A stretch of 64,000 nt of DNA, taken from assembly GCA_947172415.1 (NCBI GenBank), contig OX359196.1, forward strand, positions 312,501 to 376,500, read 5' to 3'. This DNA is from Chondrosia reniformis. Taxonomy: Eukaryota > Porifera > Demospongiae > Chondrillida > Chondrillidae. Below, piece by piece: positions 12,201-30,760 of the stretch. The translations under genes and the position numbers were made by a program. Position 1 is the first letter of the stretch, and every line of letters begins with the position of its first letter. Below the pieces are notes generated by a model. That model was not told the origin of the DNA and did no database searches. It saw only the letters and a list, made by a program, of their open reading frames with translations.

Positions 12201-13360
12201 GATTATCAGCTTGTCTGGTGAAGTGAATCACCACTAATTAAGAATGTACACTGATTATTTGTTGTAGTTAGTTTAAGAGGGAGAACATGGGAGAGGCATT
12301 GCTGTGGCAGTTGTAGCTCAGTGGCAGAGCAACTGGTGGTCATAACCAGCTGTCCTGGGTTCAATTGCTGGGAATTGCTTCTTTCGTGTTTTTCCCTCTT
12401 TATGATGTTTCATTGATTATTACTTGTGGTTTGATTATCACATCGATTATTCATACACACAGATACAATTAAGACCTGCAAGTTACCAGGTTGTACCAGA
12501 CCCTGCTGGAGGGAGGCAAGCGGACATGTTCATGATTACTGCAGAAGAGGTCATGCAGAGGAACACAAGAGAATGAAGGAGCAGAACAGACAAGAAAATG
12601 AGTCATCTTGGAGCTTTGGTAATATATAGAAGCATTAAATTGAAGGACTGTAATATAAGAGCTACATTTTTAATTGGGATACATATTCATAAATGGCTTT
12701 CTCCTGGTGAGCTACAAAAATACAATTTTCAAACTGTACTTTCTCCATCATCTTGTTGATGAAGAGCTATAGCTTGAAGTGTCCCCTAAAAGCTCACCAA
12801 GAAGATATCCATGATATGGTATCAGATAAATAATTATTTTTATTAATTTTATATACCAAAAAGGGAACCTATTCAATTGGTTTTCTAATTCAAGTGACAA
12901 GAAAGGACCAATCAATTTCTACCACAGACATGAGCCATATTTTGAATTCACAAACTTCTATGAAGCTCCCATTACCATAAATGACAAGAGGTGGGCAACT
13001 GCAGAGAACTACTTTCAAGGACAAAAGTTTATTGGATCTCCTTTTGAAGAGGCAGTGAGACAGTGTTCCACTGCAAGAGAAGCCCTGAACTTGTCTCGTA
13101 AACCTGAAGTGAAGCAGTGGCAGAGGAAGGACTGGTTTGAGGCTAATGTTGACGTGATGAGAGTAGGTCTGTATGCCAAGTTCACTCAGCACAGAGATCT
13201 TCAAGAGCTACTGCTGGGGACTGGAAAGAGGGAAATTATAGAGCACACGGATAAAGACAGGTTCTGGGGAGATGGAGGAGATGGAAGTGGAGAGAACATG
13301 CTCGGAAGGTTGCTGGTGGAGCTCAGAAAGAAGCTGAAGAAAGAAATTAGCAACAGTTGA
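9253..13360 (+). CDS. NADAR-2: probable lipid-anchored zinc-module/NADAR protein with long charged repeats
   Basis: Seven exons, all joined at phase 1: 9253-9376, 9476-10525, 10579-11253, 11331-11837, 11891-12061, 12463-12618, 12864-13360, giving 1059 residues. The start MGCSSTK fits the N-myristoylation rule (Gly2, small residue at 6, Lys7) with a palmitoylatable Cys3. Exon 2 holds about 30 copies of the nonapeptide HEEEIDTKP. Exon 3 starts with a Cys module (CKLDGCIKKC...CCCTGH), then about 14 copies of TEGDKLEG. Exon 4 has CMECGKDL...CSTC and about 20 copies of DEKEQ. Exon 5 has CIQCHTAK...CQQC, and exon 6 CKLPGCTRPC...DYCRRGH. Exon 7 is the NADAR domain, ending KKEISNS. It lies 198 bp after NADAR-1 and has the same plan, so the two are tandem duplicates. 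Function beyond the enzyme family is not known. Confidence 0.87.
9621..10497 (+). repeat. 27-bp coding minisatellite (HEEEIDTKP)n in NADAR-2
   Basis: About 30 in-frame units of ATTGATACCAAACCGCATGA plus GGAAGAG. Substitutions are mostly H/Q, P/L/S and E/K. One unit (near 10330) carries a 9-bp insertion. The protein strand is the acidic reading; the other frames are open only because the unit lacks stop codons. Confidence 0.9.
10798..11130 (+). repeat. 24-bp coding minisatellite (TEGDKLEG/TEGDKPEG) in NADAR-2
   Basis: About 14 units of GGCACTGAAGGAGATAAGCT plus GGAA. The first three units carry V-D-M or V-D-K in place of G-D-K. It is the second of three unrelated charged repeats in consecutive exons. 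Confidence 0.9.
11446..11750 (+). repeat. 15-bp coding minisatellite (DEKEQ)n in NADAR-2
   Basis: About 20 units of GACGAGAAGGAGCAA, degenerating at the 3' end (DKKEQ, EKREQ). A short related array (DVKEQ/DEKEQ) reappears in the truncated NADAR-3 at 16264-16385. Confidence 0.9.
12307..12379 (+). other. tRNA-like sequence, probably a tRNA-derived relic
   Basis: GCAGTTG opens an acceptor-like stem and TAGCTCAGTGG (12314-12324) matches the RNA polymerase III A box exactly. A D-arm GCTC/GAGC and an anticodon-arm CTGGT/ACCAG can form, and GGTTCAATT resembles a B box. The T-stem does not pair, and the anticodon loop lacks the usual U33 in the best fold. It is therefore more likely a tRNA pseudogene or SINE head than a working tRNA. 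It lies in the intron between NADAR-2 exons 5 and 6. Confidence 0.4.
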
Positions 13361-13522
13361 TATCCAAACTAATAATGAATCCAAATTTGAACTTAATACT
13401 TGTGATGAGACAATCATTTAAAAATTTTACATATTAAAATTATAGTCTTGCAATTGGCAGCATTATGTGATGTTATATGGCTTTGCATGTGATGTAGAAT
13501 ACGCCACGCGCCTCTCTTGCTA

Positions 13523-13687
13523 ATGGCTAATAAAGGTGGTTACAATTACACTTTTGTTGAAGAGCCAAGTGAAGATTTTAAGTGCCCCATTTGTCTACTG
13601 GTTCTTCGCAATCCTCACTTGACAGGATGCTGCGGACAGAACCTTTGTGAGAGCTGTATCGAGTCCAATCCTCAAGACTTTCAATAG
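13523..13687 (+). pseudogene. TRAF-A: truncated RING exon of the TRAF-like family
   Basis: It begins MANKGGYNYTFVEEPSEDFK and continues through the first half of the RING (CPICLLVLRNPHLTGCCGQN) to ESCIES. It then jumps to NPQDFQ and a stop at 13685. Compared with the intact copies, the part between the second Cys pair of the RING and the QDFQ segment, plus everything downstream, is lost. It starts 163 bp after the NADAR-2 stop, the same spacing as in the other units. Confidence 0.85.
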
Positions 13688-13699
13688 ATACGTGATCAA

Positions 13700-13955
13700 T
13701 ATTTTTGTATACATTGAAACATAATATTGAATGCACTGTATTCAATATTCCTGTTCCTCAATATAAGAGCCTTCACTTCACTTCTACCACTGCTTCTGCT
13801 TTTCACAAAAGTGTTGATATCCCGACTAGCAGAAAGACAAGTAACTGGCTCCATTTTACCATTCAACTCCAAATGTGTGATATAGTCAAGAGGTTGTACA
13901 CTTTCATCAGATGTGATGGATCTGCATACACTAAGATCTACAACAAGATAATATT
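13700..13955 (-). pseudogene. Inverted fragment of the unrecognised family (first domain exon)
   Basis: Read on the minus strand, this segment matches the exon at 23171-23399, including its acceptor (TAG then ATCTTAGTGTATGCA), the SDESVQPL-like stretch, VDIxTFVKS-like residues and the IECTVFN antisense pattern. It sits directly after the truncated TRAF-A, so one rearrangement probably joined the two. Confidence 0.75.
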
Positions 13956-14029
13956 CTTTAGCATATAGGCATGCAAACTGTAAGCATGTGAGAATGTCAG
14001 AAAGTTACAAGTCATCTCTTAAAATCTGC

Positions 14030-15000
14030 ATTTGATAGAACACAATTTCAAAAACTCATTAGACATGCTCTATAGATGTCTGTGAATGCTGACAAAAAGT
14101 GTTAGCTTCATATTTCTCCATTTGATAGAGTTACAGCCCTCAATGTACATTAAATTCTGGTATAGAAACTTAACATATGGTGAGAGATAGAGCAAATTTT
14201 AAGTTCCATCAAAATTTCAAAATCTTATTGGACATGCTCTATAGATGTCTGTGAATGCTGATACAAAGTATTAGCTTCATATCTATCCATTTCATAGACC
14301 TACAGCACTAAATGTACATTAAAATTCTGCTATACGAAATTATTGTACGTATGGTGAGAGATAGGGCAAATTTTAAGTTTCATCAAAATTTCACAATCTC
14401 ATTGGACATGCTCTATAGATGTTTGTGAATGCTGACACAAAGTGTTAGCTTCATAACTCTCCATTTATTAGAGTTACAGCCCTCAATGTACATTTAATTC
14501 CGGTATACAAAGTTAATGTATGGTGAGTTATAAGGCAAATTTTAAGTTTCATCAAAATTTCAAAAACCTATTGGCCATGTTCTATAGATGTCTGTGAATG
14601 CTGACACAAAGGTTTAGCTTCATATCTCTCCATTTGATAGAGTGACAGCCCTCAATGTACATTAAATTCTAGTATACAAAGTTAATGTATGGTGAGAGAT
14701 TGGGCAAATTTTAAGTTTCATCAAAATTTCACAATCTCATTGGACATGCCCTATAGATGTTTGTGAATGCTGACACAAAGTGTTAGCTTTATATCTCTCC
14801 ATTTATTAGAGTTACAGCCCTCAATGTACATTTAATTCCGGTATACAAAGTTAATGTATGGTGAGAGATAAGGCAAATTTTAAATTTCATCAAAATTTCT
14901 AAAACTCATTGATCATGCTTAATAGATATCTGTGAATGCTGACTAAGTCACAGCTTCATATATATCCATTTGATAGAGTTACAGAACTACAGTTAATGTA
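14030..15000. repeat. About 170-bp tandem repeat array, 5-6 copies
   Basis: The block GACATGCTCTATAGATGTCT recurs near 14062, 14231, 14405, 14573 and 14744, with a decayed copy near 14905, giving a period of about 168-174 bp. Other shared blocks are GTTACAGCCCTCAATGTACA and GGTGAGAGATAGGGCAAATT. Single copies recur at 16155-16262 and 25195-25490. No ORF or TIRs are seen. A short remnant of the GST 3' region (GAATGTCAGAAAGTTACAAG, near 13991) precedes the array, as it does at 25170. Confidence 0.85.
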
Positions 15001-16150
15001 TTGAATTGTTAGAGAAATTGCGTAATACTATATATGGCCGACCGTTAGAAGGTTTACAATTGAGACAACATTCCATTCTATATCTGAAAATTCAGAACAG
15101 TTTCCAATTTTTATACATAGGGATATGCACTGTGTAGTACTTGATTGTTATCGAAGTACTATCTATCCATATATAATATATGGATGTCGTTAAAGTGAAA
15201 TTTTGCCAATCGACGGCCAACGAAACTCCAAAGAAAAAAAGTTGGACCATACCGAACGCTACCATCCACGACACTCAGAGGCCGGGATCGGTGGTAACGC
15301 TCTGCCGAGTTGAGCTTTGGGTGTCACTTGCGTGAGAAGAACCAGTTCTTCTCGATATGGCCGACTCATATGAATCCTTAAAGATATCAGATGCCAATCC
15401 CACATTACGTGGAACCCCCCCGAAATCCGGATTATTGGTGAGCACGTCTCTATGGCACCAACCGATTAGGAGACAGCTTCAGAGTCTAAGCGCTACCAAC
15501 CTCTATGGGAACCGCAACCACCATAGAGATGTGTCCAGGTAGGCCTACTATATAAGGTTTTTCGCTTCTATTTATATGAAGTTTTGTCCAAAGAAAACGG
15601 TTGTGGTTGGGACCTTTTTTAATATATTTCTCCTTATTTCCAGATCAGTGAATTGTTTCGAGCAAGTTTAAAGACATAGGCAGTATTAGTGGTTCACCTG
15701 AAAACTGGGAAAAGCGAAAAAAATCCTGTAAGTGTCTTGATGGGCCGAGGAGAACCACTTTTCTGATCCCAATTATTTTCGAGAAATCGTCAATTTATTG
15801 CACGTTAATTCCAGACCAGTGGATCGTTCCAAGCAATTTTACACACATACGTACGCAGTATTTCCAATACATCTCAAAACTGTGGAAAATGGATAAAAGC
15901 CTGTATGTGTCTTGGTGGAGGGAGGAGAGCGACTTTTAATGATACAGAAAACTAGAGATAGTGCGAGGTCCGATACTACGATATTAATGTCTATGATCGA
16001 TATTTCAACTGGGTGCTGGCCGTACTCGTCTATATAATTCCTAACTCAAAGAAAGAATGATGTATTGATAAAATATAGCTAAATAATGTTTTTAAAACAA
16101 ATGTAGCTCCAAAAAATGCTTTTCTTTATATATTGTTGGATATACTCTGT
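15001..16150. other. Single-copy segment with two diverged direct repeats and a possible first exon
   Basis: This segment interrupts the about 170-bp repeats and looks richer in GC. Two diverged direct repeats are visible: 15640-15770 and 15812-15930 share CAGTGGATCGTTCC-like, ACGCAGTATT-like and CCTGTAxGTGTCTTG blocks. I find no match to the neighbouring gene families. Confidence 0.5.
15357..15541 (+). CDS. Possible 5' exon of unknown identity (MADSYESLKISD)
   Basis: An open frame begins with ATG in a fair context (CGATATGGCC) and runs to a donor-like CCAG/GTAGGC. A phase-2 join to the acceptor TTTTAG at about 16251 would read into SFISRDEKEQD, the first codons of the truncated NADAR-3. This could therefore be a recruited new first exon for NADAR-3. 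All other introns of that family are phase 1, which argues against it. Not recognised as any known protein. Confidence 0.25.
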
Positions 16151-16251
16151 ATGTATGGTAAGAGATAGGGCAAATTTTAAGTTTCATCAAAATTTCAAAA
16201 ACTCTTTGGATATGCTCTATAAGATGTCTGTGAATGCTGACACAAAGTTTT

Positions 16252-17160
16252 AGCTTCATATCTCGAGATGAGAAGGAGCAAGATGTGAAGGAACAAGATG
16301 TGAAGGAACAAGATGTGAAGGAGCAAGATGTGAAGGAACAAGATGTGAAGGAACAAGATGAGAAGGAACAAGATGAGAAGGAGCAGAACGGACAAGAAAA
16401 TGAGTCATCTTGGAGCTTTGGTAATATATAGAAGCATTAAATTGAAGGACTGTAATTGGGCTACATACTCATAAATGGCTTTTTCCTGGTGAGCTATACA
16501 ACAGCATACAAAAGTATAAAGTTCTACCTGTAAAGTCTCCATCAGCAAAATTGTTGATGAAGAGCTATAGCTTAATGTGTTCCTTATGCTCACCAAGAAG
16601 AAATCCATGTGGTATCAGTATACTAATTACATTAATACATTACTGATTTTATATACCAAAAAGGGAACCTATTCAATTGGTTTTCTAATTCAAGTGACAA
16701 GAAAGGACCAATCAATTTCTACCACAGACATGAGCCATATTTTGAATTCACAAACTTCTATGAAGCTCCCATTACCATAAATGACAGGAAGTGGGCAACT
16801 GCAGAGAACTACTTCCAAGGACAAAAGTTTATTGGATCTCCTTTTGAAGAGGCAGTGAGACAGTGTTCCACTGCAAGAGAAGCCCTGAACTTGTCTCGTA
16901 AACCTGAAGTGAAGCAGTGGCAGAGGAAGGACTGGTTTGAGGCTAATGTTGACGTGATGAGAGTAGGTCTGTATGCCAAGTTCACTCAGCACAAATATCT
17001 TCAAGAGCTACTGCTGGGGACTGGAAAGAGGGAGATTATAGAGCACACAGATAAATGCAGGTTCTGGGGAGATGGAGGAGATGGAAGTGGAGAGAACATG
17101 CTCGGAAAGTTGCTGGTAGAGCTTAGAAAGAAACTGAAAAAGGAAATTAGCAACAGTTGA
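16252..17160 (+). CDS. NADAR-3: 5'-truncated copy with DEKEQ-repeat exon fused to NADAR exon
   Basis: Exon 16252-16425 reads SFISRDEKEQ followed by DVKEQ repeats and then QNGQENESSWSF; a phase-1 donor follows. The Cys module that stands before ENESSW in NADAR-2 is missing, so the DEKEQ array was joined straight to the end of that exon. Exon 16664-17160 is a full NADAR domain (WATAENYFQGQKF, IIEHTDKCRFWGDGG, ending KKEISNS). D-to-C in HTDKC and R-to-K in KYLQELLL are copy-specific changes. The upstream exons are replaced by the about 170-bp repeat, so whether it has a promoter is unclear. Confidence 0.65.
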
Positions 17161-17327
17161 TATCCAAACTAATAATTAATCCAAATTTGAACTTAGTACT
17201 TGTAATGAAACAATCATTTAAAAATTTTACATATTAAAATTATAGTCTTGCAATTGGCATGCAGCATGATGTGATGTTATATGGCTTAGTATGTGATGTA
17301 GAATACGCCACGTGCCTCCTCTTGCCA

Positions 17328-18612
17328 ATGGCTAATAAAGGTGGTTACAATTACACTTTTGTTGAAGAGCCAAGTGAAGATTTCAAGTGCCCCATTTGTC
17401 TACTGGTTCTTCGCAATCCTCACTTGACAGGATGCTGCGGACAGAACCTTTGTGAGAACTGTATCGAGTCTTCAAGAGAGCGTAGCTCGCAGTGTCCTCT
17501 GTGTAGGGGGGTAGACTTTCAATCGATGCGCGACTTGAAGGAGGAGAGAAAGATCCTCAGTCTAGAGGTGTACTGCACTAATCGGAGAGGCGGATGTACC
17601 TGGAAGGGAACGGTTAAGGAGATCGACGACCATCTTCGTCCAAGTGAAGTAGAGGGCGAGTGTAGGTACGAGTTTCTTTTCTGTCCAAACGAATGTGGAT
17701 CCTATCTGAGGCGTTCTCAGATAAAGAAACACATGAGCGAGGAATGTTCTCGGAGACCTTTCACTTGCAAGTACTGCACTTACAGTGCGACCTATGGGGA
17801 AGTTACTTTACATTATGTGGAGTGTGTGAAGTATCCAGTTAGGTGTCCCAATGGATGTCGCGAGGAGTGTGATATACCTCGCGGAGAAGTGTCCAGACAC
17901 TTGACTGAATGTCCTCTGCAAGTCGTCCCTTGTCCCTTCAAGGAGCAGGGCTGTGAGGAGGAGTGTGCGAGGAACAAGCTCTCACAACACTTGGAGGACA
18001 AGGTACAGGAGCACCTCTCTCTAGTTAGTAGTCAACTTGGAGTGGTTGTGAAGAAGATGGAGTCACTGGAACAGGAAAATGCAGAACTTAAGGAAAGGGT
18101 CACTCGCAGTGAATGCCAACTGAGGGAAAGTATTTCAGAAGTTTTGAAGAAGATGGAATCACTAAAACCTGAAGTACCGGAATTGTGTTGTGAAAGTGAT
18201 GTACCTCAGATGACTTTGAAAAGTTAGTTTAAAACAATCCATGTTCATGTGATCTAGTGTATATTCAATAATTAAATGTGGCTTTAGCGTCCCCTCTAAT
18301 CCATACATGCATTAGCTTTCTGTATTGAAGTCCATATGTATACAACTATATTATTGTTGCAACAAACAGTTACATGACACCTATTTAGTAAGTCACATAC
18401 TGCATGGATGTATAGGTGGTGATACTGAAAAGAAAAAGAAAAAAGTCAAGGATCCCAAGCCAATAAAAAGTAAACTATTTGGAGATATTCGCCTAACAAT
18501 ACAAGATGGAGCACCTCACACTGCAATGATGAGGTTGACTGATCCATCTTCCTCATACACCCCAAAACCACCTCATGCCACTGATGAATCAGGTTCAAAA
18601 AATGCAAAGTGA
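17328..18612 (+). CDS. TRAF-B: RING plus TRAF-type zinc finger protein, MATH-less
   Basis: Start MANKGGYNYTF (ATG 17328). Residues 21-59 are a RING: C21, C24, C36, C42, C45, C56, C59, with Gln39 where C3HC4 RINGs have His. TRAF-type zinc fingers follow to about residue 225 (VYCTNRRGGCTWKG, FCPNECGSYL, CKYCTYSATYG, CPNGCREECD, CPFKEQGC). Then comes a short coiled coil (MESLEQENAELKERVTRSE). There is no MATH domain. The frame can end at TAG 18225. A donor A/GTTAGT at 18222 joined at phase 1 to 18416-18612 instead gives a Lys-rich tail (DTEKKKKKVKDP...SSSYTPKPP) and 363 residues. Such proteins act as E3 ligases or signalling adaptors. The coding start is 168 bp after the NADAR-3 stop. Confidence 0.88.
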
Positions 18613-19112
18613 CATTGTATAACTGTTATACACTCCGCCCCTAGGCTTTTTGGCATTTACTGAGTTATCGGCAGGATATTGTATTGTATAACTATGCATG
18701 CTATCACATTGTATATAATAAGAGGCCAAAGTGTCTCTTATATACAACAGTTATGGAATATAATTTACCTTGGTTGCCCCAGCAACGGAGTGTATACATA
18801 TATTATACCAGTGACTTATATGTATATAGTTATTATATATATAAAGACAAAGAATAATTGAGACACATAAGCTATCTACTAACTCTATATACCTTTAAAG
18901 TTGCATGGCAATATATAAGTACCAAGTGCCTCCCATCAATGTCAGTAATCATAAATAGTCTATGGTCTACTTAGGTTGGCTTTCCTTTGTTCTTCAGGTA
19001 AAAATTTCAAAGTGTAATCAATTGTGCTTGTATAACACTTCACAAGTAGAATATTTTTGTAAAATATGCAGTATGTATATCGTATACAAATGTATCTTCT
19101 ATTATGACTCAG
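18613..19112. other. Non-coding spacer shared between array units
   Basis: AT-rich spacer, repeated almost unchanged at 22594-23050 and partly at 27307-27400 (shared blocks CACTCCGCCCCTAGGCTTTT and GTTGCCCCAGCAACGGAGTG). It follows the TRAF tail exon in each unit. No ORF is supported. Confidence 0.7.
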
Positions 19113-20198
19113 CTGTATCAGCCACATACCCCCAACAACACCAACAACACCAGCAATACCAGCAACACCAGCAACACCAACAACACCAGCAACACCATCA
19201 ACACCAGCAACAGTACAGTGTATATCATTATACACATCCGAAACGATGTAACTGTGGAAAGCCAGTCCACGTGGATGAGGAGTTTGGTCCATTTGATTAC
19301 TGTTCTCCTCAGTGCAGAGACAATAGAGAATTATCAATTGCTAAGAAGGATATGGAGAAATGGATGAAGAAATATAATTTGCCAAAGTTTAAGGATCAAG
19401 AAAAGAAAAGAGAGATGAAAAGTTCTGAACGGCAGGTGAATGCAGCCAAATCTAGTGCAATGGCTCCAGGCTCTGCTGTAAAAATAACTTCCAATCCTAG
19501 TGGTCAGAGCTCTCCTACCTCTCATATGGCTGGACCCAAAACCTCTTCTGGTAAATCTGCATTGGGTGTATGGATATAGTGTATTTACATAGCCTCAAGA
19601 TTGGAGATATATCCATTGATCAGCTTTTAAAATTATCCTTTTTCATATTATTTGTCATCCATATCTACTTGTAACTTTTATACTGTAAACTTGTATAGAA
19701 AAGTTATCACTTTACAGCTATGAGATATTAAACAAATTAACAGACTAAATTTTATGCATATCTGATAATATGATGTTATTCCCATTAGATTATAAGTGAT
19801 GGATGAAATATGTTCTGCATAGCATACTACGTAAATGAATGATTTCCCAGAAATGATTATGTGAATATGTTATGTTCTTGTTTAAGTGGCAATAAAATGG
19901 AGTCTACTATAATATGTAGGAACAATGACTACAGCTTCTCAGACTGGCCAAGCTAGCCAAGTACCTGTGACTAGTACTGATACCAGAAGCACCAGTCCAC
20001 CTCTTTATTCTACTGTGCTGACTAGTAAGCCGAACAAGAGTCATCAAATCCAAAGAAATGAAACTGGAAATCAGCAATCACATCATGAAGTACCTCACAC
20101 TGCAGTGATGAAGTCTGATAACCCATCTTCCTCCTACACCCCAAAACCACCTTATGCCACTGACACTGAAAATGTACATAGTGGATCAGGTTCAAAAG
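19113..20198 (+). CDS. Two exons of the Q/H-rich, CNCGKP-module family (5' incomplete)
   Basis: Exon 19113-19550 (438 nt) encodes a Gln/His run, then CNCGKPVHVDEEFGPFDYCSPQC and a Lys/Glu-rich helix (WMKKYNLPKF). Exon 19920-20198 (279 nt) encodes a Ser/Thr-rich linker (TASQTGQASQVPVTSTDTRS) ending SSSYTPKPPYATD, the same motif as the TRAF tail exon. Both are phase-1 symmetric. The equivalent first coding exon of the minus-strand member (33307-33145) is not found here, and what follows is a NADAR exon instead of the domain seen in that gene. It may be spliced to NADAR-4 or be a decaying duplicate. Confidence 0.6.
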
Positions 20199-20280
20199 GT
20201 GCCATATGCATGATATGCATAATCTTTATACTGACACTATCAATAAATAATTTATATCAACTCTTATTGTTTGTTCCTAG

Positions 20281-20500: not shown

Positions 20501-20663
20501 ATATACACTTTGTAATTATTTATGTTGTACACTTCAGATAGAAAATTTCAAAGTATAGTCAATTGCGCTTGTACGTATAACATTTCACAAAAGTATCATT
20601 GTTTATTTAACTGTAATGGAGATTGAAGGGACACATCCAGCTGAATATGGAGTTCTAATTCAA

Positions 20664-21130
20664 GTGACAAGAAAGGACCAATCAATTTCTACCACAGACA
20701 TGAGCCATATTTTGAATTCACAAACTTCTATGAAGCTCCCATTACCATAAATGACAAGAGGTGGGCAACTGCAGAGAACTACTTTCAAGGACAAAAGTTT
20801 ATTGGATCTCCTTTTGAAGAGGCAGTGAGACAGTGTTCCACTGCAAGAGAAGCCCTGAACTTGTCTCGTCTACCTGAAGTGAAGCAGTGGCAGAGGAAGG
20901 ACTGGTTTGAGGCTAATGTTGATGTGATGAGAGTAGGTCTGTATGCCAAGTTCACTCAACACAGAGATCTTCAGGAGCTACTGCTGGGGACTGGAAAGAG
21001 GAAGATTATAGAGCACACAGATAAGGACAGTTTCTGGGGAGATGGAGGAGATGGAAGTGGAGAGAACATGCTCGGAAAGCTGCTGGTAGAGCTAAGAGAG
21101 AAACTGAAGAAAGAAATTAGCAACAGTTGA
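20664..21130 (+). CDS. NADAR-4 terminal exon
   Basis: Full NADAR domain exon (DKKGPINFYHRHEPYFEFTN to KKEISNS, stop 21128-21130). The motifs RWATAENYFQ, VGLYAKFTQH and DSFWGDGGDGSGENMLGKLL are kept, with R-to-S in the usual DRFWGDGG. The GGAACC-containing acceptor used by NADAR-2 and -3 is absent; upstream sequence is GAGATTGAAGGGACACATCC, shared with NADAR-6. The upstream partner exon could not be identified. Confidence 0.7.
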
Positions 21131-21277: not shown

Positions 21278-22593
21278 ATGGCTAATAAAGGTGGTTACAA
21301 TTACACTTTTGTTGAAGAGCCAAGTGAAGATTTCAAGTGCCCCATTTGTCTACTGGTTCTTCGCAATCCTCACTTGACAGGATGCTGCGGACAGAACCTT
21401 TGTGAGAGCTGTATCCAGTCTACAAGAGAGCGTAGCTCGCAGTGTCCTCTATGTAGAAGGGAAGATTTTCAATCGATGTGCGACTTGAAGGAGGAGAGAA
21501 AGATCCTCAGCCTAAATGTGTACTGCACTAATCGGAGGGACGGATGTATCTGGAAGGGAACGGTTAAGGAGATCGACGACCATCTTCGTCCAAGTGAAGC
21601 AGAGGGCGAGTGTAGGTACGAGTTTCTTTTCTGTCCAAACGAATGTGGATCCAATCTGAGGCGTTCTAAGATGAAGAAACACATGAGCGAGGAATGTCTT
21701 CGGAGACCTTGCACTTGCAAGTACTGCACTTACAGTGCGACCTATGGGGAAGTTACTAGAGTGCATTATTTAAAGTGTATAAAGTATCCAGTTAGGTGTC
21801 CCAATGGATGTCGCGAGGAATGTGATATACCTCGCGGAGAAGTATCCAGACACTTGACTGAATGTCCACTGCAAGTCATCCCTTGTCCCTTCAAGGAGCA
21901 GGGCTGTGGGAAGGAGTGTACGAGGAACAAGCTCTCACAACACTTGGAGGACAAGGTACAGGAGCACCTCTCTCTAGTTAGTAGTCAATTTGGAGCAGTT
22001 AGTAGTCAATTTGGAGTGGTTGTGAAGAAGATGGAGTCACTGGAACAGGAAAATGCAGAACTTAAGGAAAGGGTCACTCGCAGTGAATGCCAACTGAGGG
22101 AAAGTATTTCAGAAGTTTTGAAGAAGATGGAATCACTAAAACCTGAAGTACTGAAATTGTGTTGTGAAAGTGATGTACCTCAGATGACTTTGAAAAGTTA
22201 GTTTAAAACAATCCATGTTCATGTATATTCAACAATTAAAAGTGGCTTTAGCTTTAGCTTAAGTGTGTCCCCTCTAATCCACGCATTAACTGTCTACACC
22301 CTTGTATTGAAGTCCATATGTATACAACTATATTATTGTTACAACAAACAGTTACATGACACCTATTTAGTAAGTCACATACTGTACTGCATGGATGTAT
22401 AGGTGCTGATACTGAAAAGAAAAAGAAAAAAGTCAAGGATCCCAAGCCAATAAAAAGTAAACTATTTGGAGATATTCACCTAACAATACAAGATGGAGCA
22501 CCTCACACTGCAATGATGAGGTTGACTGATCCATCTTCCTCATACATCCCAAAACCACCTCATGCCACTGATGAATCAAAAAATGCAAAGTGA
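21278..22593 (+). CDS. TRAF-C: RING plus TRAF-type zinc finger protein, MATH-less
   Basis: Same plan as TRAF-B. ATG 21278 reads MANKGGYNYTF; the RING again has Gln in ligand position 4 (CCGQNLCESC). TRAF zinc fingers and a coiled-coil heptad region follow, with one extra SSQFGAV unit before the coiled coil. Exons 21278-22196 and 22403-22593 total 370 codons in frame through the phase-1 donor at the first stop. If unspliced, it ends at TAG 22199-22201. It starts 147 bp after the NADAR-4 stop. Confidence 0.88.
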
Positions 22594-23170
22594 CATTGTA
22601 TTACATTGTTATACACTCCGCCCCTAGGCTTTTTGGCATTTACTGAGTTATCGGCAGGATATTGTATTGTATAACTATGCAAGCTATCGCTTTGTATAAA
22701 AGTTAAATATAATAAGAGGCCAAAGTGCCTCTTATATACAACAGTTATGGAATATAATTTACCTTGGTTGCCCCAGCAACGGAGTGTATACATATATTAT
22801 ACCAGTGACTTATATGTATATAGTTATTATATATATATATAATATATATAAAGACAAAGAATAATTGAGACACATAAGCTATCTACTAACTCTATATACC
22901 TTTAAAGTTGCATGGCAATATATAAGTACCAAGTGCCTCCCATCAATGTCAGTAATCATAAATTGTCTATGGTCTACTTAGGTTGGCTTTCCTTTGTTCT
23001 TCAGGTAAAAAATTTCAAAGTGTAATCAATTGTGCTTGTATAACACTTCACAAAAGTTTCAGTGATTATTTAACTGTAATGGAGATTGAAGGGACATATC
23101 CAGTTGAATATGGAGTTAGTTACTGTATATGACAAATGATGCTGAAGTAAGAATTATTATCTTGTTTTAG
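22594..23170. other. Non-coding spacer, second copy
   Basis: Duplicate of the spacer after TRAF-B, including (TA)n near 22830 and the block GGTTGGCTTTCCTTTGTTCT. It leads into the domain exons at 23171. No coding sequence seen. Confidence 0.7.
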
Positions 23171-23910
23171 ATCTTAGTGTATGCAGTTGATGCTAGATCC
23201 ATCACATCTGATGAAAGTGTACAACCTCTTGACTATATCACACATTTGGAGTTGAATGGTAAAATGGAGCCAGTTACTTGTCTTTCTGTTAGTCCAGATA
23301 TCAACACTTTTGTGAAAAGCAGAAACAATGGTAAAAGTGTAGTGAGGGTTCTTGTATTGAGGAACAGGATTGAATACAGTGCATTCAATTTGCTTCAAGG
23401 TACATACTGTATACGTATATGCCCTCATTATATGAATGATATACATGTACACTTGTGGTGTATATGGAGATACTTTCTCCTTTTCTTTATGTTAGTTAAT
23501 CACACCCTCCTTCATGGCCTTGGTGAAAAAGAAGAGATTGTCTTAACTGGCATTGAGGCAAGCAAGAATGGCCTAATGAGCATTAAGGAATTTTTAGGTA
23601 TAGCAATGAAAGAAGGAACAGGAATTCGAAGTGTCTATGGAAAGGTGAGGTTGTGCAGCATGTGATAATTTCTATCTTTGAGAGTCTTTTTCTGCAGATT
23701 TCAGTTGTGTATGGATCAAACGGAAGACAAATGGGACTGTCAGGTGGTACTGCCATTCTTGCAGTAGCTTTGGTTACATCATTGGGTCACTTATTTGGTC
23801 CACAGACTTGGAATAAGAGTGGATTTGAAGACATCCAGAGACTTTGCCAAGAAAGAGGATTCCCAGATAAATATGCATTACTCCTTTTTATCCGTCCAAA
23901 CAAGCCCTAA
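23171..23910 (+). CDS. Unrecognised-family domain, plus-strand copy, three exons
   Basis: Exons 23171-23399, 23496-23644 and 23698-23910 add up to exactly 197 codons. They begin ILVYAVDARSITSDESVQPL and end ALLLFIRPNKP. Exon phases (0/1, 1/0, 0) equal those of the minus-strand gene at 31603-30910, and the proteins align along their whole length (PLDYITH/PLDYVTH; GIEASKNGL/GITAQKKHL; GFPDKYALLLF/NFPEHFILLLA). No open start codon or N-terminal exon was found directly upstream. It may be the 3' end of a gene starting with the exons at 19113, with NADAR-4 and TRAF-C inserted between. I do not recognise the fold. Confidence 0.6.
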
Positions 23911-24414
23911 AACTTAAGTCGCATATGTGATAATTGAATGTGACTGCATGTATACTTTTATAAAGTTATGTTTTTACTGCTACATCCCAGTAATAATTTA
24001 AATATTACATTATCTTTTTTGGTTATTTACTTAAAGTTAAAGACTTATAGGAATTAGATGATATAGGGGTTATTTCTAGATATAACTGAAACCCCCTGAA
24101 AAAGACTGACTCGAGCTCGTTTTGGAATTTTATAATATGACAGACAGCCCACTAGGTGTGAAAGTGTAACTGATATGCTATGTGGTCATATAGCTTATAA
24201 TCTTATAACCTATATATTGCTCTATATATACATAAGTGTGATAATCCCATATGTGTCAAGTTTACTGCAGCTGTTAGCAGGAACACATTTTATGTGCCTG
24301 CATATACAGTGTATACAGATTGTATAATAGTAAATACACATACGTATATTATCTATTGCAAGACTCCTAATAGTAGTACACATTCTTCTGGAAAGTGTCG
24401 ACTGCAAGAATATA
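23911..24414. other. AT-rich sequence, nothing recognised
   Basis: Downstream of the domain copy ending at 23910. No exon, repeat unit or RNA gene is seen. Confidence 0.5.
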
Positions 24415-24475
24415 ACGATTTCATCTGATTTCCATTCAAATATCTGATAGATATCCTAAGTAATGACTACAAGAC
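24415..24475 (-). pseudogene. Short fragment of the unrecognised-family last exon
   Basis: On the minus strand it reads YQIFEWKSDEI after a stop-containing ITxD segment, matching SYQIFEWKSVE of the intact gene. It borders the inverted GST fragment. Confidence 0.6.
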
Positions 24476-24484
24476 TAATTTGTA

Positions 24485-25195: not shown

Positions 25196-25490
25196 AATCT
25201 CCATTTGTTAGAGTTACAACCCTCAATATACATTAAATTCTGGTATACAAAGTTAATGTATGGTGAGAGATAGGGCAAATATTTAAAGTTCCATTAAATT
25301 CTGGTATACAAAGTTAATGTATGGTGAGAGATAGGGCAAATATTTAAAGTTCCATTAAATTCTGGTATACAAAGTTAATGTATGGTGAGAGATAGGGCAA
25401 ATTTTAAGTTCCATCAAAATTTCACAAACCATTGGACATGCTCTATAGATGTCTGTGAATGCTGACACAAAGATTTAGCACTGCACTGCT
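25195..25490. repeat. Partial about 170-bp repeat with internal 60-bp triplication
   Basis: The block TTCTGGTATACAAAGTTAAT plus GTATGGTGAGAGATAGGGCA occurs three times, followed by GGACATGCTCTATAGATGTC. It is the same family as the 14.0-15.0 kb array. Confidence 0.8.
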
Positions 25491-25539
25491 GATACAACAT
25501 AAACTTATTCACATCTACCTTTGCAGTGTGACACTGGAT

Positions 25540-25874
25540 ACACATATTTTGAATTCACAAACTTCTATGAAGCTCCCATTACCATAAATGACAAGAGGTG
25601 GGCAACTGCAGAGAACTACTTTCAAGGACAAAAGTTTATTGGATCTCCTTTTGAAGAGGCAGTAAGACAGTGTTCCACTGCAAGAGAAGCCCTGAACTTG
25701 CCTCGTCTACCTGAAGTGAAGCAATGGCAGAGGAAGGACTGGTTTGAGGCTAATGTTGATGTGATGAGAGTAGGTCTGTATGCCAAGTTCACTCAGCACA
25801 AATATCTTCTATCTGATATCCCTACTTTTAACTTCATTTTAGAATGTTTTTATTTAACTTGTATTGTATTATAG
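25540..25874 (+). pseudogene. NADAR-5: NADAR exon truncated by a foldback-element end
   Basis: It matches the other NADAR exons from YFEFTNFYEAPITIND to LYAKFTQHKYL, then diverges at about 25809. The sequence that follows (25820-25860) is the terminal segment of the foldback element at 27412-27784. The WGDGG...GENMLG half of the domain, which is conserved in the family, is missing, so the product should be inactive. TRAF-D still follows 66 bp downstream. Confidence 0.82.
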
Positions 25875-25939
25875 TCAGCATGAAGTGATGCTATACGACT
25901 TTAGCATGTGATGTAGAATACGCCACGCCTCTCTTGCTA

Positions 25940-27306
25940 ATGGCTAATAAAGGTGGTTACAATTACACTTTTGTTGAAGAGCCAAGTGAAGATTTCAAGT
26001 GCCCCATTTGTCTACTGGTTCTTCGCAATCCTCACTTGACAGGATGCTGCGGACGGAACTTTTGTGAGAGCTGTAAGCGTAGCTCACAGTGTCCTCTGTG
26101 TAGTGGGGAAGACTTTCAATCGATGCGCGACTTGAGGGAGGAGAGAAAGATCCTCAGTCTAGAGGTGTACTGTACTAATTGGAGGGACGGATGTACCTGG
26201 AAGGGAACGATTAAGGAGATCGATGACCATCTTCGTCCAAGTGAAGTAGAGGGCGAGTGTAGGTATGAGTTTCTTTTGTGTCCGTACAAATGTGGATCCA
26301 ATCTGAGGCGTTATGAGATGAAGAAACACATGAGCGAGGAATGTTTTCGGAGACCTTTCACTTGCAAGTACTGCACTTACAGTGCGACCTATGGGGAAGT
26401 TACTTTACATTATGTGGAGTGTGTGAAGTATCCTGTTGGATGTCCTAATAGATGTCACGAGGAATGTGATATACCTCGCGGAGAAGTGTCAAGGCACTTG
26501 ACTGAATGTCCTCTGCAAGTTGTCCCTTGTCCCTTCAAGGAGCAGGGCTGTGGGGAGGAGTGTATGAGGAACAAGCTCTCACAACACTTGGAGGACAAGG
26601 TACACGAGCACCTCTCTCTAGTTAGTAGTCAATTTGGAGCAGTTAGTAGTCAACTTGGAGCAGTTAGTAGTCAATTTGGAGTGGTTGTGAAGAAGATGCA
26701 ATCCTTGGAACAGGAAAATGCAGAACTTAAGGAAAGGGTCACTCGCAGTGAATGCCAACTGAGGGAAAGTATTTCAGAAGTTTTGAAGAAGATGGAGTCC
26801 TTGGAACAGGAAAATGCAGAACTTAAGGAAAGGGTCACTCGCAGTGAATGCCAACTGAGGGAAAGTATTTCAGAAGTTTTGAAGAAGAAAACTGAAGTAC
26901 CGAAATTGTGTTGTGAAAGTGATGTACCTCAGATGACTTTGAAAAGTTAGTTTATGTTCATGTGATCTAGTGTATATTCAACAATTAAAAGTGGCTTTAG
27001 CTATAGCTTAAGTGTGTCCTCTCTAATCCATACACACATTAGCTGCACCCTTGTTTGAAGTCCATATGTATGAAAGTATATTATTGTTACAACAAACAGT
27101 TACATGACACCTATTTAGTAAGTCACATACTGCATGGATGTATAGGTGCTGATACTAAAAAGAAAAAGAAAAAAGTCAAGTATCGTAAGCAAATAAAAGG
27201 TCAACTATTTGGAGATATTATACAAGATGGAGCACCCACCCCAAAACCACCTTATGCCACTGATGTACATGTACTTGGGGGATCAAGTTCAAAAGGTGCA
27301 AAGTGA
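25940..27306 (+). CDS. TRAF-D: RING plus TRAF-type zinc finger protein with doubled coiled coil
   Basis: ATG 25940 (MANKGGYNYTF). The RING loop is shorter (SCKRSSQCPLC, lacking IESSRE), and ligand position 4 is Arg (CCGRNFCESC). TRAF zinc fingers match the family. The coiled-coil module QENAELKERVTRSECQLRES is present twice in tandem, and the SSQ(F/L)GAV unit three times. Exons 25940-26945 and 27146-27306 join at phase 1 into 389 codons; the first stop is TAG at 26948. No MATH domain. Confidence 0.87.
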
Positions 27307-27411
27307 CATTGTATAACTGTTATACACTCCACCTCTAGGCTTTTCGGTGTTTACTGAGTTATCGGCAGAATATTGCATTGTATAACTATGCATGCTATCG
27401 CATTGTATACA

Positions 27412-27784
27412 AGTTAAATAAAAACATTCAAAAATAAAGTTAAAAGTAGGGATGGCACTATAACAGTGATTGGCACATCTAGAAAAAGTAACGAAACAAG
27501 AAAGTGATCATATGGTAAGGCTAACATTGCAGAAGTGGCATACTGAAACTTAACTATACACATCACTTCTATGTTTGGGCGCATCATGGATATACTAGAA
27601 GTAGGGATCGATACGCCCACACATAGAAGTGATGTGTATAGTTAAGTTTCAGTATGCCACTTCTGCAATGTTAGCCTTACCATATGATCACTTTCTTGTT
27701 TCGTTACTTTTTCTAGATGTGCCAATCACTGTTATAGTGCCATCCCTACTTTTAACTTCATTTTTGAATGTTTTTATTTAACTT
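27412..27784. mobile_element. Foldback/MITE-like element with about 170-bp near-perfect inverted arms
   Basis: Left arm 27412-27581 and right arm 27614-27784 are reverse complements along their length (ends AGTTAAATAAAAACATTC and GAATGTTTTTATTTAACT), separated by a 32-bp loop. There is no ORF, so it must be mobilised in trans. A 40-bp piece of the same end sits at 25820-25860. Target duplication was not identified. Confidence 0.88.
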
Positions 27785-27974
27785 TATAATTAAGAAACAC
27801 ATAAGCTGTCTATATACTAACTCTATATATCTGTAAAGTTGCATGGGAATATGTATCAAGTTCCTCCCATCAATGCCAGTAATCATAAATAATCAATGGT
27901 CTACTTAGTTTGGCTTCCATCATTCATTAATATTTATACTAAAATTATCAATAAATAATTTATATCAACTCTTA

Positions 27975-28235
27975 TTGTTTGTTCCTAGCCCCAATTACCA
28001 TACAACACTCAACCACACATGCAATAGGACACCAGCAAACATTAAAGAGTTCTTCAACATCAAAAGGGAAAACATTTACACAAGAAGAAGGTACAAAGAA
28101 CTCTCAAATACCCGACTACAACAACTGGGAACACTGGAGCTCATATCAGTAGCAGCAGACACACTCCTACGTCATCTACCAACTCTACCAGTAAAATTAG
28201 CTGTATATATGTATCTACAAATATATACTTTGTAA
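27975..28235 (+). pseudogene. Second copy of the uncertain exon-like block
   Basis: Near-identical to 20275-20515 with a 12-bp insertion (AACACTCAACCACAC region). The neighbouring CNCGKP and Ser/Thr exons are missing here, so it is probably a leftover of a larger duplicated unit. Confidence 0.5.
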
Positions 28236-28404
28236 TTATTTATGTTGTACACTTTCCGATCCATCATTCTTCAGATAGAAAATTCAAAGTGTAGTCAATT
28301 GCGCTTGTACGTATAACACTTCACAAAAGTATCATTGTTTATTTAACTGCAATGGAGATTAATTGAAGGGACACATCCAGCTGAATATGGAGTTCTAATT
28401 CAAG

Positions 28405-28870
28405 TGATCACAAAGGACCAATCAATTTCTACCACAGACATGAGCCATATTTTGAATTCACAAACTTCTTTGAAGCTCCCATTACCATAAATGACAAGAG
28501 GTGGGCAACTGCAGAGAACTACTTTCAAGGACAAAAGTTTATTGGATCTCCTTTTGAAGAGGCAGTGAGACAGTGTTCCACTGCAAGAGAAGCCCTGAAC
28601 TTGTCTCGTCTACCTGAAGTGAAGCAGTGGCAGAGGAATGACTGGTTTGAGGTTAATGTTGATGTTATGAGAGTAGGTCTGTATGCCAAGTTCACTCAGC
28701 ACAGAGATCTTCAAGAGCTACTGCTGGGGACTGGAAAGAGGGAGATTATAGAGCACACAGATAAAGACAGGTTCTGGGGAGATGGAGGAGATGGAAGTGG
28801 AGAGAACATGCTCGGAAAGCTACTGGTGGAGCTCAGAAAGAAACTGAAGAAAGAAATTAGCAACAATTGA
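28405..28870 (+). CDS. NADAR-6 terminal exon
   Basis: Complete NADAR domain (HKGPINFYHRHEPYFEFTNF to KKEISNN, stop 28868-28870) with WATAENYFQGQKF, VGLYAKFTQH and DRFWGDGGDGSGENMLGKLL. K-to-N in WQRND and A-to-V in FEVN are private changes. As with NADAR-4, no clear phase-1 acceptor or upstream exon was found. TRAF-E begins 234 bp downstream. Confidence 0.65.
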
Positions 28871-29104
28871 TATCCAAACTAATAATGTATCCAATTTGAA
28901 CTTAGTACTTGTGATGAGACCATCATTTAAAATACTATTTTACATACATATGCAACAAGCAAGCAGCATGAACTAGTACAGTATATATTGTATTATAGTC
29001 TTATAATCTTGGCAGCATGATGCGATGTTATACATACGTCTTAGCATGTGATCTAGCTGGCTATAGAATACGCCCCATGCACTGACACGCCTCCTCTTGC
29101 CCCA

Positions 29105-29660
29105 ATGGCTAAAAAAGGTGGTTACAATAACACTTTTGTTGAAGAGCCAAGTGAAGATTTCAAGTGCCCCATTTGTCTACTGGTTCTTCGCAATCCTCAC
29201 TTGACAGGATGCTGCGGACAGAACCTTTGTGAGAGCTGTATCCAGTCTACAAGAGAGCGTAGCTCGCAGTGTCCTCTGTGTAGAAGGGAAGACTATCAAT
29301 CGATGCGCGACTTGAAGGAGAAGAGAAAGATTCTCAGTCTAGAGGTGTACTGTACTAATCGGAGGGGCGGATGTACCTGGAAGGGAACGGTTAAGGAGAT
29401 CGACGACCATCTTCGTCCAAGTGAAGTAGAGGGCGAGTGTAGGTATGAGTTTATTTTGTGTCCGTACAAGTGTGGAAGAAAGCCGAAGCGTTGCGAGATG
29501 AAGAATCACATGAGCGAGGAATGTCTTCGGAGACCTTACACTTGCAAGTACTGCACTTACAGTGCGACCTATCTGGAAGTTACTAGAGCGCATTATTTGA
29601 AGTGTGTGAAGTATCCAGTTAGGTGTCCCAATGGATGTCGCGAGGAGTGTGATATACTGT
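29105..29660 (+). pseudogene. TRAF-E: 3'-truncated RING/TRAF-type zinc finger gene
   Basis: It starts MAKKGGYNNTFVEEPSEDFK, with an intact RING region (Gln in ligand position 4) and two TRAF zinc fingers to PNGCREECDI. At about 29657 the sequence leaves the family (other copies continue PRGEVSRHLTECP) and enters a fragment of the unrecognised family. The open frame runs on to TGA at 29765 in unrelated sequence. The coiled coil and tail exon are gone. Confidence 0.8.
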
Positions 29661-29689
29661 ACATAATATGTCATTCTAGCCTGTGTAGG

Positions 29690-30760
29690 AACGTGATGTT
29701 TGTATATACTGTAGCTCCTAGTGTGTGCAGTGGATATAGAAAGTGGTTTTCTGGTCAAACCTCTTGATTATGTCACACATGTGGAGAGTACTCCTGTGAC
29801 TGAATTGGCTAGGAGATATACGTAATCTAACCTTGTGTGATATTGTGAGACAGAAAACAGGAAAATCTTTTCAGGTTGATATCTGTCGTAGCAAGAAGTT
29901 TCTTCCACAATTTGAAGCATTTAGAGAAGGTAACTTAAATAGTTGTTTTAATTTACTTTTGTCTACCAAAACTGCATGCCAAGGATTCAAGATAAAGAAA
30001 AAGACAAAGACTCCCAGGATCACTGATGAAGGGTGGAATTCCCAGAAACGGCTGTCTGACCCAGTGGAGAAGAAGATGAAAGAAGGGAAAAGAAGGAAGA
30101 AAAGACTACTGTATCTTCATCTAAAGCTCTCTTTAGGTTTAGTTCCCCTATAGGCTCTTTTTACAGAATAGGCATATAGCATGTAGGAAAATGGTATCTT
30201 AGATTTTTCATGTGAATCACTTTTGTTGTGTTTCAGAAATGCTATATATATATATATAGGTTACGAATTTCAGAAAGCTACACTTGTAACTATTGGTGTC
30301 GCTGCACAAAAAGAAGCTCTTCAGAGTCAAAATATTGAATCTTTTTTGGGCATCAAACTTTGGTCTAATCAGGCAAATGTCAATTAAATTAATTATACTT
30401 GTCTTTATATAATTTGAATACATTTTGTATATTTATATTTTATAGATTAGGTCTGTCAGTTGGCATGGAATAGGCCGCGCACTTGGACTGAGACCATTCG
30501 ATACCATTCATGCAGCTGTAATCATTACTAAGGACAACCATCAGATATTTAAATCAGATGAAATTGGTCTGTATGCCAAGTTCACTCAACACAGAGATCT
30601 TCAAGAGCTACTGCTGGGGACTGGAAAGAGGGAGATTATAGAGCACACGGAGAAAGACAGGTTCTGGGGAGATGGAGGAGATGGAAGTGGAGAGAACATG
30701 CTCGGAAAGCTGTTGGTGGAGCTCAGAAAGAAACTGAAGAAAGAAATTAGCAACAGCTGA
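29690..30760 (+). pseudogene. Chimera of the unrecognised family fused in frame to the NADAR C-terminal half
   Basis: From 29730 a frame reads CAVDIESG...KPLDYVTHVESTPVTELARRYT, is broken by TAA and a frameshift near 29822, and resumes LCDIVRQKTGKSFQVDICRS. An exon from about 30258 reads FQKATLVTIGVAAQKEAL...SFLGIKLWSNQ. Exon 30446-30760 (315 nt, fully open) reads GRALGLRPFDTIHAAVIIT then QIFKSDEI joined in frame to GLYAKFTQHRDLQELLLG and the rest of NADAR to KKEISNS. The front is damaged, the last exon is clean. An interspersed repeat lies at 29985-30220. Confidence 0.65.
29985..30220 (-). repeat. Interspersed repeat element, copy 3
   Basis: Reverse orientation: CACTGATGAAGGGTGGAATT, CCCAGAAACGGCTGTCTG, TTTAGTTCCCCTATAGGC and GTAGGAAAATGGTATCTTAG. 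Confidence 0.8.

What the first reader, a model, noticed from the sequence alone, without database searches (positions are those of the whole stretch)
12864..30760. Alternating NADAR / TRAF-RING tandem array
Six NADAR terminal exons or fragments (NADAR-2 to -6 plus a C-terminal half) alternate with five RING/TRAF-zinc-finger genes (A-E). TRAF starts are spaced 3.2-4.7 kb apart and each lies 66-235 bp after a NADAR exon. NADAR is known as an N-glycosidase fold (YbiA; ADP-ribosyl-guanine hydrolase in DarT-NADAR systems). Pairing it repeatedly with ubiquitin-ligase-like proteins suggests a co-evolving stress or immune module. The pairing is seen in sequence; the immune role is inference.
Basis: partly seen in the sequence, partly recalled or inferred. 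Interest (0 to 1): 0.82.

Follow-up and report, generated by a model that had tools for sequence, protein, structure and literature searches.

The report
Sponge NADAR–TRAF tandem gene array
A kidney-sponge chromosome carries a small, partly decayed tandem array in which an ADP-ribose-removing enzyme gene sits next to a ubiquitin-ligase-like TRAF gene; the repeats come from copying one gene pair, but close relatives of the TRAF gene elsewhere in the genome are also tied to ADP-ribose-handling domains, which hints at a real functional link.

Summary
On chromosome 8 of (inferred) Chondrosia reniformis, NADAR exons and RING/zf-TRAF ORFs alternate at the stated spacings. Only part is intact: TRAF B, C and D are full length, A is a 54-residue stub, E is truncated. 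NADAR-2, -3, -4 and -6 are complete; NADAR-5 and the last fragment are halves. The repetition is not independent evidence of pairing: one unit of roughly 4 kb was duplicated, and a chromosome-12 TRAF copy still carries a NADAR tail. No listed database protein fuses the two domains, and each family also occurs without the other.

The new lead lies outside the given coordinates. Array TRAFs group with chromosome-11 TRAFs that are fused to macro-like domains or lie within about 2 kb of macrodomains (another ADP-ribose-handling fold). Macro clusters lie near TRAFs more often than chance (3 of 18 against 0.1 expected); another species has a RING–zf-TRAF–Macro ORF. NADAR copies are under purifying selection; recent TRAF copies show little.

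Best reading: a young array of two separate genes, apparently varying between haplotypes, probably an ADP-ribose eraser beside a TRAF-type adaptor/E3, analogous to PARP9/DTX3L. The immune role is unproven.

The parts
8389..9054 (+). NADAR-1, last exon (complete domain), outside the given coordinates; nearest TRAF is TRAF-A, 4.4 kb downstream; upstream zinc-finger exon CKLPGC..HDFC at 8164
12477..12620 (+). probable zinc-finger exon (CKLPGC..VHDYC..HA) of the NADAR-2 gene; exon borders by eye
12864..13360 (+). NADAR-2, last exon, complete (exon start by eye)
13523..13687 (+). TRAF-A, 54-residue stub (RING part only, then a stop)
16664..17160 (+). NADAR-3, last exon, complete (exon start by eye); its upstream zinc-finger exon is missing
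17328..18227 (+). TRAF-B, full-length single-exon ORF, 299 aa (RING, zf-TRAF, coiled-coil-like tail)
19120..20206 (+). probable exons of the NADAR-4 gene (QHQ repeat, zinc finger CNCGKP..DYCSPQC at 19247, S/T/P-rich exon); borders by eye
20645..21130 (+). NADAR-4, open frame of the last exon, complete domain
21278..22201 (+). TRAF-C, full length, 307 aa
25543..25809 (+). NADAR-5, N-terminal half only
25940..26950 (+). TRAF-D, full length, 336 aa, with a 5-residue gap in the RING relative to its presumed allele P0121
28385..28870 (+). NADAR-6, open frame of the last exon, complete domain
29105..29767 (+). TRAF-E, truncated; homology to other copies ends at 29656
30563..30760 (+). NADAR C-terminal half (no E/K catalytic pair)
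32168..33147 (-). inverted copy (83.5%) of the QHQ/zinc-finger exons of the NADAR-4 type

Best explanation
Shown by sequence: the locus is a young tandem array made by segmental duplication of one head-to-tail pair, a NADAR gene whose last exon encodes the NADAR domain, followed about 150 bp later by a single-exon RING/zf-TRAF ORF without a MATH domain. Several copies are decayed. Strongly suggested: these are two separate genes, and the array differs from a second set of C. reniformis copies, probably the other haplotype.

Inferred: NADAR is a YbiA-type ADP-ribosyl hydrolase that strips ADP-ribose from guanine in nucleic acid (or a related N-glycosidic target). The TRAF protein is an E3-like or adaptor protein of an ADP-ribose-linked TRAF clade whose chromosome-11 members carry, or sit near, macrodomains. 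Together they would couple removal or reading of ADP-ribose marks to ubiquitin-type or TRAF signalling, most plausibly in defence against ADP-ribosylating toxins or viruses, much as the RING E3 DTX3L is paired with the macrodomain protein PARP9 in mammals. Adjacency helps co-inheritance and perhaps co-expression. It is not obligatory, since each gene also occurs alone.
For: - Duplication blocks, longest 2,441 bp at 91.8%.
- The chromosome-12 TRAF retains a NADAR tail and spacer in the same order (896 bp at 88.7% to NADAR-6 tail/TRAF-E).
- Separate genes: ATTAAA in 3 of 4 NADAR-TRAF spacers and after 3 of 3 full-length TRAF stops (10-13% of random window pieces have one, but the copies are homologous and not independent). 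None of 120 listed proteins (of 129 hits) carries both NADAR and zf-TRAF. Indels between TRAF B, C and D ORFs are all multiples of three; flank indels are not.
- NADAR is kept: ratio of nonsynonymous to synonymous proportions 0.24, pooling N2-N3 and N4-N6, Fisher p=1.4e-4. The E/K motif and the distal-glutamate motif are both present in 5 of 7 copies (residues from PMC11543638; the place of the distal glutamate is my reading). Best PDB relative: E. coli YbiA, E=1e-35.
- ADP-ribose link: the array TRAFs and the chromosome-11 TRAFs at 5.92 and 6.02 Mb are on one side of a 98/93 branch. Two of those ORFs run on into macro-like domains (hhalign probability about 90 against 0.5 or less for 6 controls); a third is separated by 82 bp from the open frame of a Macro ORF. 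Macro clusters within 3 kb of a TRAF: 3 of 18 against 0.115 expected, p=4e-4; null confined to chromosome 11 5.5-6.2 Mb p=0.002. P0204 of another species is a RING-zf-TRAF-Macro ORF.
Against: - NADAR-1, the 5.13-Mb pair and the 6.51-Mb NADAR lack a close TRAF.
- The nearest TRAF by identity outside the array family (chromosome 5) has no Macro or NADAR match nearby.
- Recent TRAF copies: ratio about 0.73, not different from 1 (p=0.20), so some may be drifting.
- The RING of B, C, D, E and chromosome 12 has Q or R where canonical RINGs have histidine, so E3 activity is doubtful; but 21 of 34 other relatives matching my motif also lack it.
- The random-placement null is liberal, because gene families cluster, and the chromosome-11 region was chosen after seeing the hits.
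- The chromosome-11 loci at 5.92 and 6.02 Mb are probably one duplicated event. Counted so, and leaving out chromosome 12, the clade enrichment is p=0.014 instead of 0.0045.
- The macro-like domains are supported by profiles of only three sequences each; Pfam does not call them.
- No expression, biochemical or other-sponge data.
Confidence: 0.5

Rival explanations
1. Hitchhiking: one accidental NADAR-TRAF adjacency in a genome rich in TRAF genes was multiplied by unequal crossing-over. The two genes have no functional relation, and the TRAF copies drift.
For: One founding adjacency fits all copies. TRAF is a large family with 124 matches and several NADAR-free tandem arrays. The ratio of nonsynonymous to synonymous change among recent TRAF copies is not different from 1. 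A and E are decayed.
Against: TRAF B, C and D keep open frames with only in-frame indels. Comparisons including the chromosome-12 copy show constraint, p=5e-5. The TRAF clade is independently linked to macrodomains.
Confidence: 0.38
2. Each TRAF ORF is the first exon of the next NADAR gene: one fused RING-TRAF-NADAR protein, tandemly duplicated.
For: TRAF, zinc-finger exons and NADAR lie in this order on one strand in the B to NADAR-4 interval.
Against: Shared TRAF C-terminus and stop in B, C, D, P0121 and P0124. ATTAAA after the TRAF stop. No fused protein in 120 listed hits. NADAR-1 and the 5.13-Mb genes have zinc-finger reading frames of their own and no TRAF nearby. The one donor-like site noticed by eye does not fit the phase of the next exon (no call).
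Confidence: 0.07
3. A DarT-NADAR-like toxin-antitoxin or other horizontally acquired defence island.
For: NADAR is the antitoxin of DarT1 systems (PMC11543638, passages).
Against: No DarT (PF14487) match in the genome at E<=0.001. Multi-exon gene structure inferred. NADARs are reported in Porifera and other animals (PMC11125620, passages).
Confidence: 0.02

Closest known systems
PARP9 / DTX3L gene pair (mammals)
   Same: An ADP-ribose-binding (macrodomain) gene and a RING-type E3 gene as close neighbours. [quoted passage not shown]
   Different: Head-to-head rather than head-to-tail; PARP9 has macrodomains and an ART fold, not NADAR; DTX3L has no TRAF zinc fingers (domain make-up recalled). 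Co-regulation is shown there, unknown here.
DarT1-NADAR (DarTG1) toxin-antitoxin
   Same: NADAR domain with the conserved catalytic E and K.
   Different: No DarT match in this genome. By sequence the sponge domain is closer to YbiA, E=1e-35, than to the PDB NADAR entry 8bau, E=3e-7.
TRAF family (TRAF4/TRAF6)
   Same: RING followed by TRAF zinc fingers; best PDB match TRAF6.
   Different: No MATH domain found; RING fourth ligand Q or R instead of H.
TRAF-macrodomain genes of chromosome 11 and P0204
   Same: Same RING/zf-TRAF module; the chromosome-11 5.92 and 6.02 Mb loci group with the array; tied to ADP-ribose-handling domains.
   Different: Partner is a macrodomain, fused or near, not NADAR. 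P0204 and the 6.19-Mb copies fall outside the array's clade.

Membership tests
NADAR superfamily, YbiA-like | PF08719 above the curated cut-off | tested here: met
   10 of 10 genome matches over cut-off
NADAR superfamily, YbiA-like | Catalytic E and K seven residues apart plus distal glutamate | tested here: met
   Both motifs in 5 of 7 array copies (N1, N2, N3, N4, N6); N5 and the C-half have one each. E/K, alignment; the distal glutamate is placed by my reading
NADAR superfamily, YbiA-like | Hydrolysis of ADP-ribosyl-guanine | not testable with these tools
   needs a biochemical assay
DarT-NADAR toxin-antitoxin | DarT toxin gene next to NADAR | tested here: not met
   0 matches to PF14487 in the genome; the control search rang in 1 of 14 genomes
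TRAF family | RING plus TRAF-type zinc fingers | tested here: met
   zf-TRAF over cut-off in B, C and D (E 4.5e-18 to 2.2e-14), below it in E; best RING model just under its cut-off in B, C, E (25.5-26.2 against 27 bits), 19.9 in D; TRAF6 RING aligns throughout
TRAF family | C-terminal MATH (TRAF-C) domain | tested here: not met
   none among the families shown at E<=1 in four ORFs (for D the best 25 of 28); present in 3 of 10 other TRAF ORFs scanned
RING E3 ligases | Complete C3HC4 zinc-ligand set | tested here: inconclusive
   Fourth ligand Q or R in B, C, D, E and chromosome 12; H in 14 of 40 sequences matching my motif, six of the 40 being array-family
E3 / ADP-ribose gene pair (PARP9-DTX3L kind) | Physical neighbourhood of the two genes | tested here: met
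   macrodomain neighbours on chromosome 11
E3 / ADP-ribose gene pair (PARP9-DTX3L kind) | Co-regulation and protein complex | not testable with these tools
   RNA-seq run ERR10177766 exists but cannot be read here

The most novel reading that the evidence does not exclude
Sponges evolved a family of TRAF-type ubiquitin-ligase-like proteins dedicated to ADP-ribose signalling. They joined the RING/TRAF-zinc-finger module more than once to an ADP-ribose reader or eraser: macrodomains fused or near on chromosome 11, and NADAR adjacent on chromosome 8. The array would be a fast-evolving, haplotype-variable defence locus against ADP-ribosylating toxins or viruses.
Probability: 0.3. Interest if true: 0.75.

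Novelty: new variant of a known kind. Interest (0 to 1): 0.5.

Why it matters
The role of NADARs in eukaryotes, animals included, is stated to be unclear (PMC11125620, passages). A TRAF clade tied to both NADAR and macrodomains gives a testable lead: ADP-ribose removal coupled to TRAF or ubiquitin signalling in one of the earliest animal lineages, comparable with PARP9/DTX3L. It also shows that counting tandem repeats of a pair overstates the evidence for pairing; the useful evidence is the association elsewhere in the genome.

Tried and rejected
Fused gene model: searched with a joined TRAF+NADAR query; no listed protein (120 of 129) has both domains. DarT partner: no match. PARP neighbours: 0 of 25 PARP clusters within 10 kb of a TRAF. 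A broken RING as a special feature of the array: rejected, because 21 of 34 other relatives matching my motif also lack the histidine. Congruence of NADAR and TRAF trees: looked at but mostly weakly supported; only the grouping of TRAF-E with the chromosome-12 copy is strong (99). A third set of exons between units (gene X): two joined reads scanned in Pfam, nothing above cut-off. Contig lengths shared between NADAR and TRAF hits, compared by eye: only the two contigs that carry window or window-like proteins; a weak negative because the lists are truncated.

Literature. NADAR with sponge: 326 papers, 20 listed; of these only PMC11287256 was opened (passages), a sponge-associated virus in which no NADAR was found. 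NADAR domain: 15 papers, none on TRAF by title or abstract. NADAR with TRAF and ubiquitin: 5 papers, none on this by title or abstract. Macro domain with TRAF-type zinc finger: 12 of 175 listed, none holds the latter term. TRAF in sponges: sponge immune-repertoire papers listed, not read. So absence from print is claimed for these searches only.

Rows dropped before counts. One search used 109 of 124 TRAF rows (15 further fragments of genes already included were left out) and 30 of 43 PARP rows; lengths of chromosomes 1, 3, 4, 6, 9, 10, 13 and 14 were rounded. In the tree, 6 of the 20 loci fetched gave no ORF passing my filter, domain hits of 60 bits or less were left out, 12 database proteins were picked by hand and cut to 330 residues, and TRAF A, TRAF E, P0121, P0124 and P0125 were not included. 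One search did not look at the NADAR-5/TRAF-D spacer.
Full report
Source. The window is part of a 117,379,552-base genome in 15 sequences. The chromosome lengths seen here agree with Table 3 of the Chondrosia reniformis (kidney sponge) genome note, PMC12181767 (passages read), which makes this chromosome 8. The organism is inferred from that agreement. No other sponge genome is held here.

The observation. All stated elements exist at the stated places and spacings. The state of the copies matters. TRAF-A is a 54-residue stub. TRAF-E departs from the family at 29656. NADAR-5 and the 30.45-kb fragment are an N-terminal and a C-terminal half. NADAR-1 lies at 8.4-9.05 kb, 4.4 kb before the nearest TRAF. 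Inside the given coordinates, three TRAF ORFs (B, C, D) are full length and four NADAR exons (2, 3, 4, 6) are complete.

How the array arose. Self-comparison shows collinear blocks, mostly at 85-98% identity. Unit 3 and unit 4 match over 2,441 bp (91.8%) through NADAR, spacer, TRAF and flank. Noncoding divergence between units (3' flank 3-8%, spacers 5-14%) is of the same order as synonymous divergence between full copies (6-16%), so the copies are young. A TRAF copy on chromosome 12 still has the last part of a NADAR exon upstream in the same order and matches NADAR-6 tail plus TRAF-E at 88.7% over 896 bp; its nearest array copy in a DNA tree is TRAF-E (99). It therefore probably left the array with a piece of NADAR. 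The alternation reflects one founding adjacency. Two upstream exon types occur: zinc finger CKLPGC..HDYC..HA (NADAR-1, -2) and CNCGKP..DYCSPQC (before NADAR-4, and in an inverted copy at 32.2-33.1 kb). Relatives of both occur at the divergent NADAR pair at 5.13 Mb.

Two genes, not one. The TRAF C-terminus and stop are shared by B, C, D and by P0121 and P0124. ATTAAA lies in 3 of 4 NADAR-TRAF spacers and after 3 of 3 full-length TRAF stops; 10-13% of random pieces of the window of like length hold one, but homologous copies do not count separately. A joined query found no protein with both domains among 120 listed of 129 hits (only proteins of 0.55 to 1.75 times 460 residues are candidates). 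RNA is needed to prove this.

Selection. Pooled N2-N3 and N4-N6 give 15 changes in 185 synonymous and 14 in 721 nonsynonymous sites, p=1.4e-4. TRAF B-C and D-E give 21 in 288 and 61 in 1143, p=0.20. B-C with D against chromosome 12 gives p=5e-5. NADAR is constrained. Recent TRAF copies show no significant constraint by this test, but all TRAF indels among B, C and D are multiples of three while flank indels are not. TRAF-D lacks five residues in its RING that its presumed allele P0121 has.

Variation. A contig of 8,594,859 bases in the protein database carries NADAR P0001 (a cluster of 11 member sequences) and TRAFs P0121, P0124 and P0125. P0121 is 99% identical to D in the core; P0124 and P0125 are at most 91% identical to any window copy. 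G000 chromosome 8 has another length (8,125,224). Another contig of similar size (8,967,804) carries P0129, 100% identical to the chromosome-5 TRAF of this genome over 272 residues. I infer that these are from the deposited alternate haplotype and that copy content differs; clustering at 90% could hide further alleles, and I could not fetch the DNA.

The wider pattern. TRAF-type genes are numerous here (124 matches; 148 zf-TRAF matches), with clusters on chromosomes 2, 3, 5 and 9 among others. Of ten ORFs scanned outside the array, three have MATH. The array ORFs have none. A tree of 42 sequences puts the array copies with chromosome 12, chromosome 5 and the chromosome-11 TRAFs at 5.92 and 6.02 Mb on one side of a branch with 98/93 support (midpoint root; the two 5.92-Mb rows are partial). 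On chromosome 11 at 6.02 Mb three open frames lie head to tail on one strand: RING/zf-TRAF plus macro-like domains (1134 aa), RING/zf-TRAF (296 aa), then after 82 bp a Macro frame (684 aa). At 5.92 Mb a RING/zf-TRAF plus macro-like frame (498 aa) faces away from a Macro frame (879 aa), about 2 kb from its Macro domain. The macro-like domains match a macrodomain profile with probability about 90 and E about 1e-6; six unrelated controls give probability 0.5 or less. The two kinds of macro-like domain do not match each other. At 6.19 Mb two tandem TRAF copies outside this clade are each followed by a Macro match 0.65-0.95 kb on. Macro clusters lie within 3 kb of a TRAF in 3 of 18 cases against 0.115 expected (p=4e-4; within 10 kb p=0.0016), PARP clusters in 0 of 25. 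A null confined to chromosome 11, 5.5-6.2 Mb, gives p=0.002. By clade, 3 of 5 TRAF clusters against 1 of 33 have such a neighbour, p=0.0045; counting the two related chromosome-11 loci once and leaving out chromosome 12 gives p=0.014. A protein of another, unidentified species (P0204) is RING-zf-TRAF-Macro in one ORF.

Function. NADAR family members remove ADP-ribose from guanine in DNA and RNA, and the role of eukaryotic NADARs is said to be unclear (PMC11543638, PMC11125620, PMC11833690; passages read). The array domains are YbiA-like and five of seven copies keep both catalytic motifs. The TRAF proteins resemble TRAF6 in RING and zinc fingers, but the usual histidine ligand is Q or R; 21 of 34 other relatives matching my motif also lack it, so ligase activity is uncertain and an adaptor role is possible. 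There is no DarT match in the genome. The nearest known logic is PARP9/DTX3L (reference title seen; domain details recalled). The immune role remains inference.

Verdict. A different line of evidence, the macrodomain ties of the same TRAF clade, makes a functional TRAF/ADP-ribose link plausible but unproven.

Noticed in passing
window 9241-11851: Three different in-frame minisatellites in a row (units of 27, 24 and 15 bp) inside long open frames between NADAR-1 and NADAR-2; the first frame holds MGCSSTK, which resembles an N-myristoylation start (recalled).
   Followed up: partly
window 27430-27790 and 25810-25874: Long palindromic (MITE-like) element; sequence like its end follows the point where NADAR-5 is cut off. 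Seen by eye.
   Followed up: no
window 13726-13958 (inverted), 23149-23915, 29664-30550, 30900-31600 (minus): Scattered exon-like fragments of a third gene (gene X) of unknown kind; pieces also lie behind the chromosome-12 TRAF, so it may have been part of the original unit. No Pfam family above cut-off.
   Followed up: partly
window 12300-12380: Sequence that looks like a tRNA-derived element (SINE-like), by eye only.
   Followed up: no
window 37600-48000 (minus): Open frames that look like a multi-exon laminin-like/EGF-rich gene (by eye), with a large minisatellite at about 45.8-46.7 kb; another large satellite at 53.2-54.9 kb.
   Followed up: no
L025 (chr 11, 6.0145-6.0244 Mb) and L026 (chr 11, 5.917-5.9265 Mb): RING/zf-TRAF frames that run on into macro-like domains, next to Macro-domain frames; apparently related loci 0.1 Mb apart.
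   Followed up: yes
L027 (chr 11, 6.1895-6.1994 Mb): Two tandem RING/zf-TRAF plus Macro units with a 547-aa frame that looks like a cytochrome P450 (by eye) on the opposite strand between them.
   Followed up: partly
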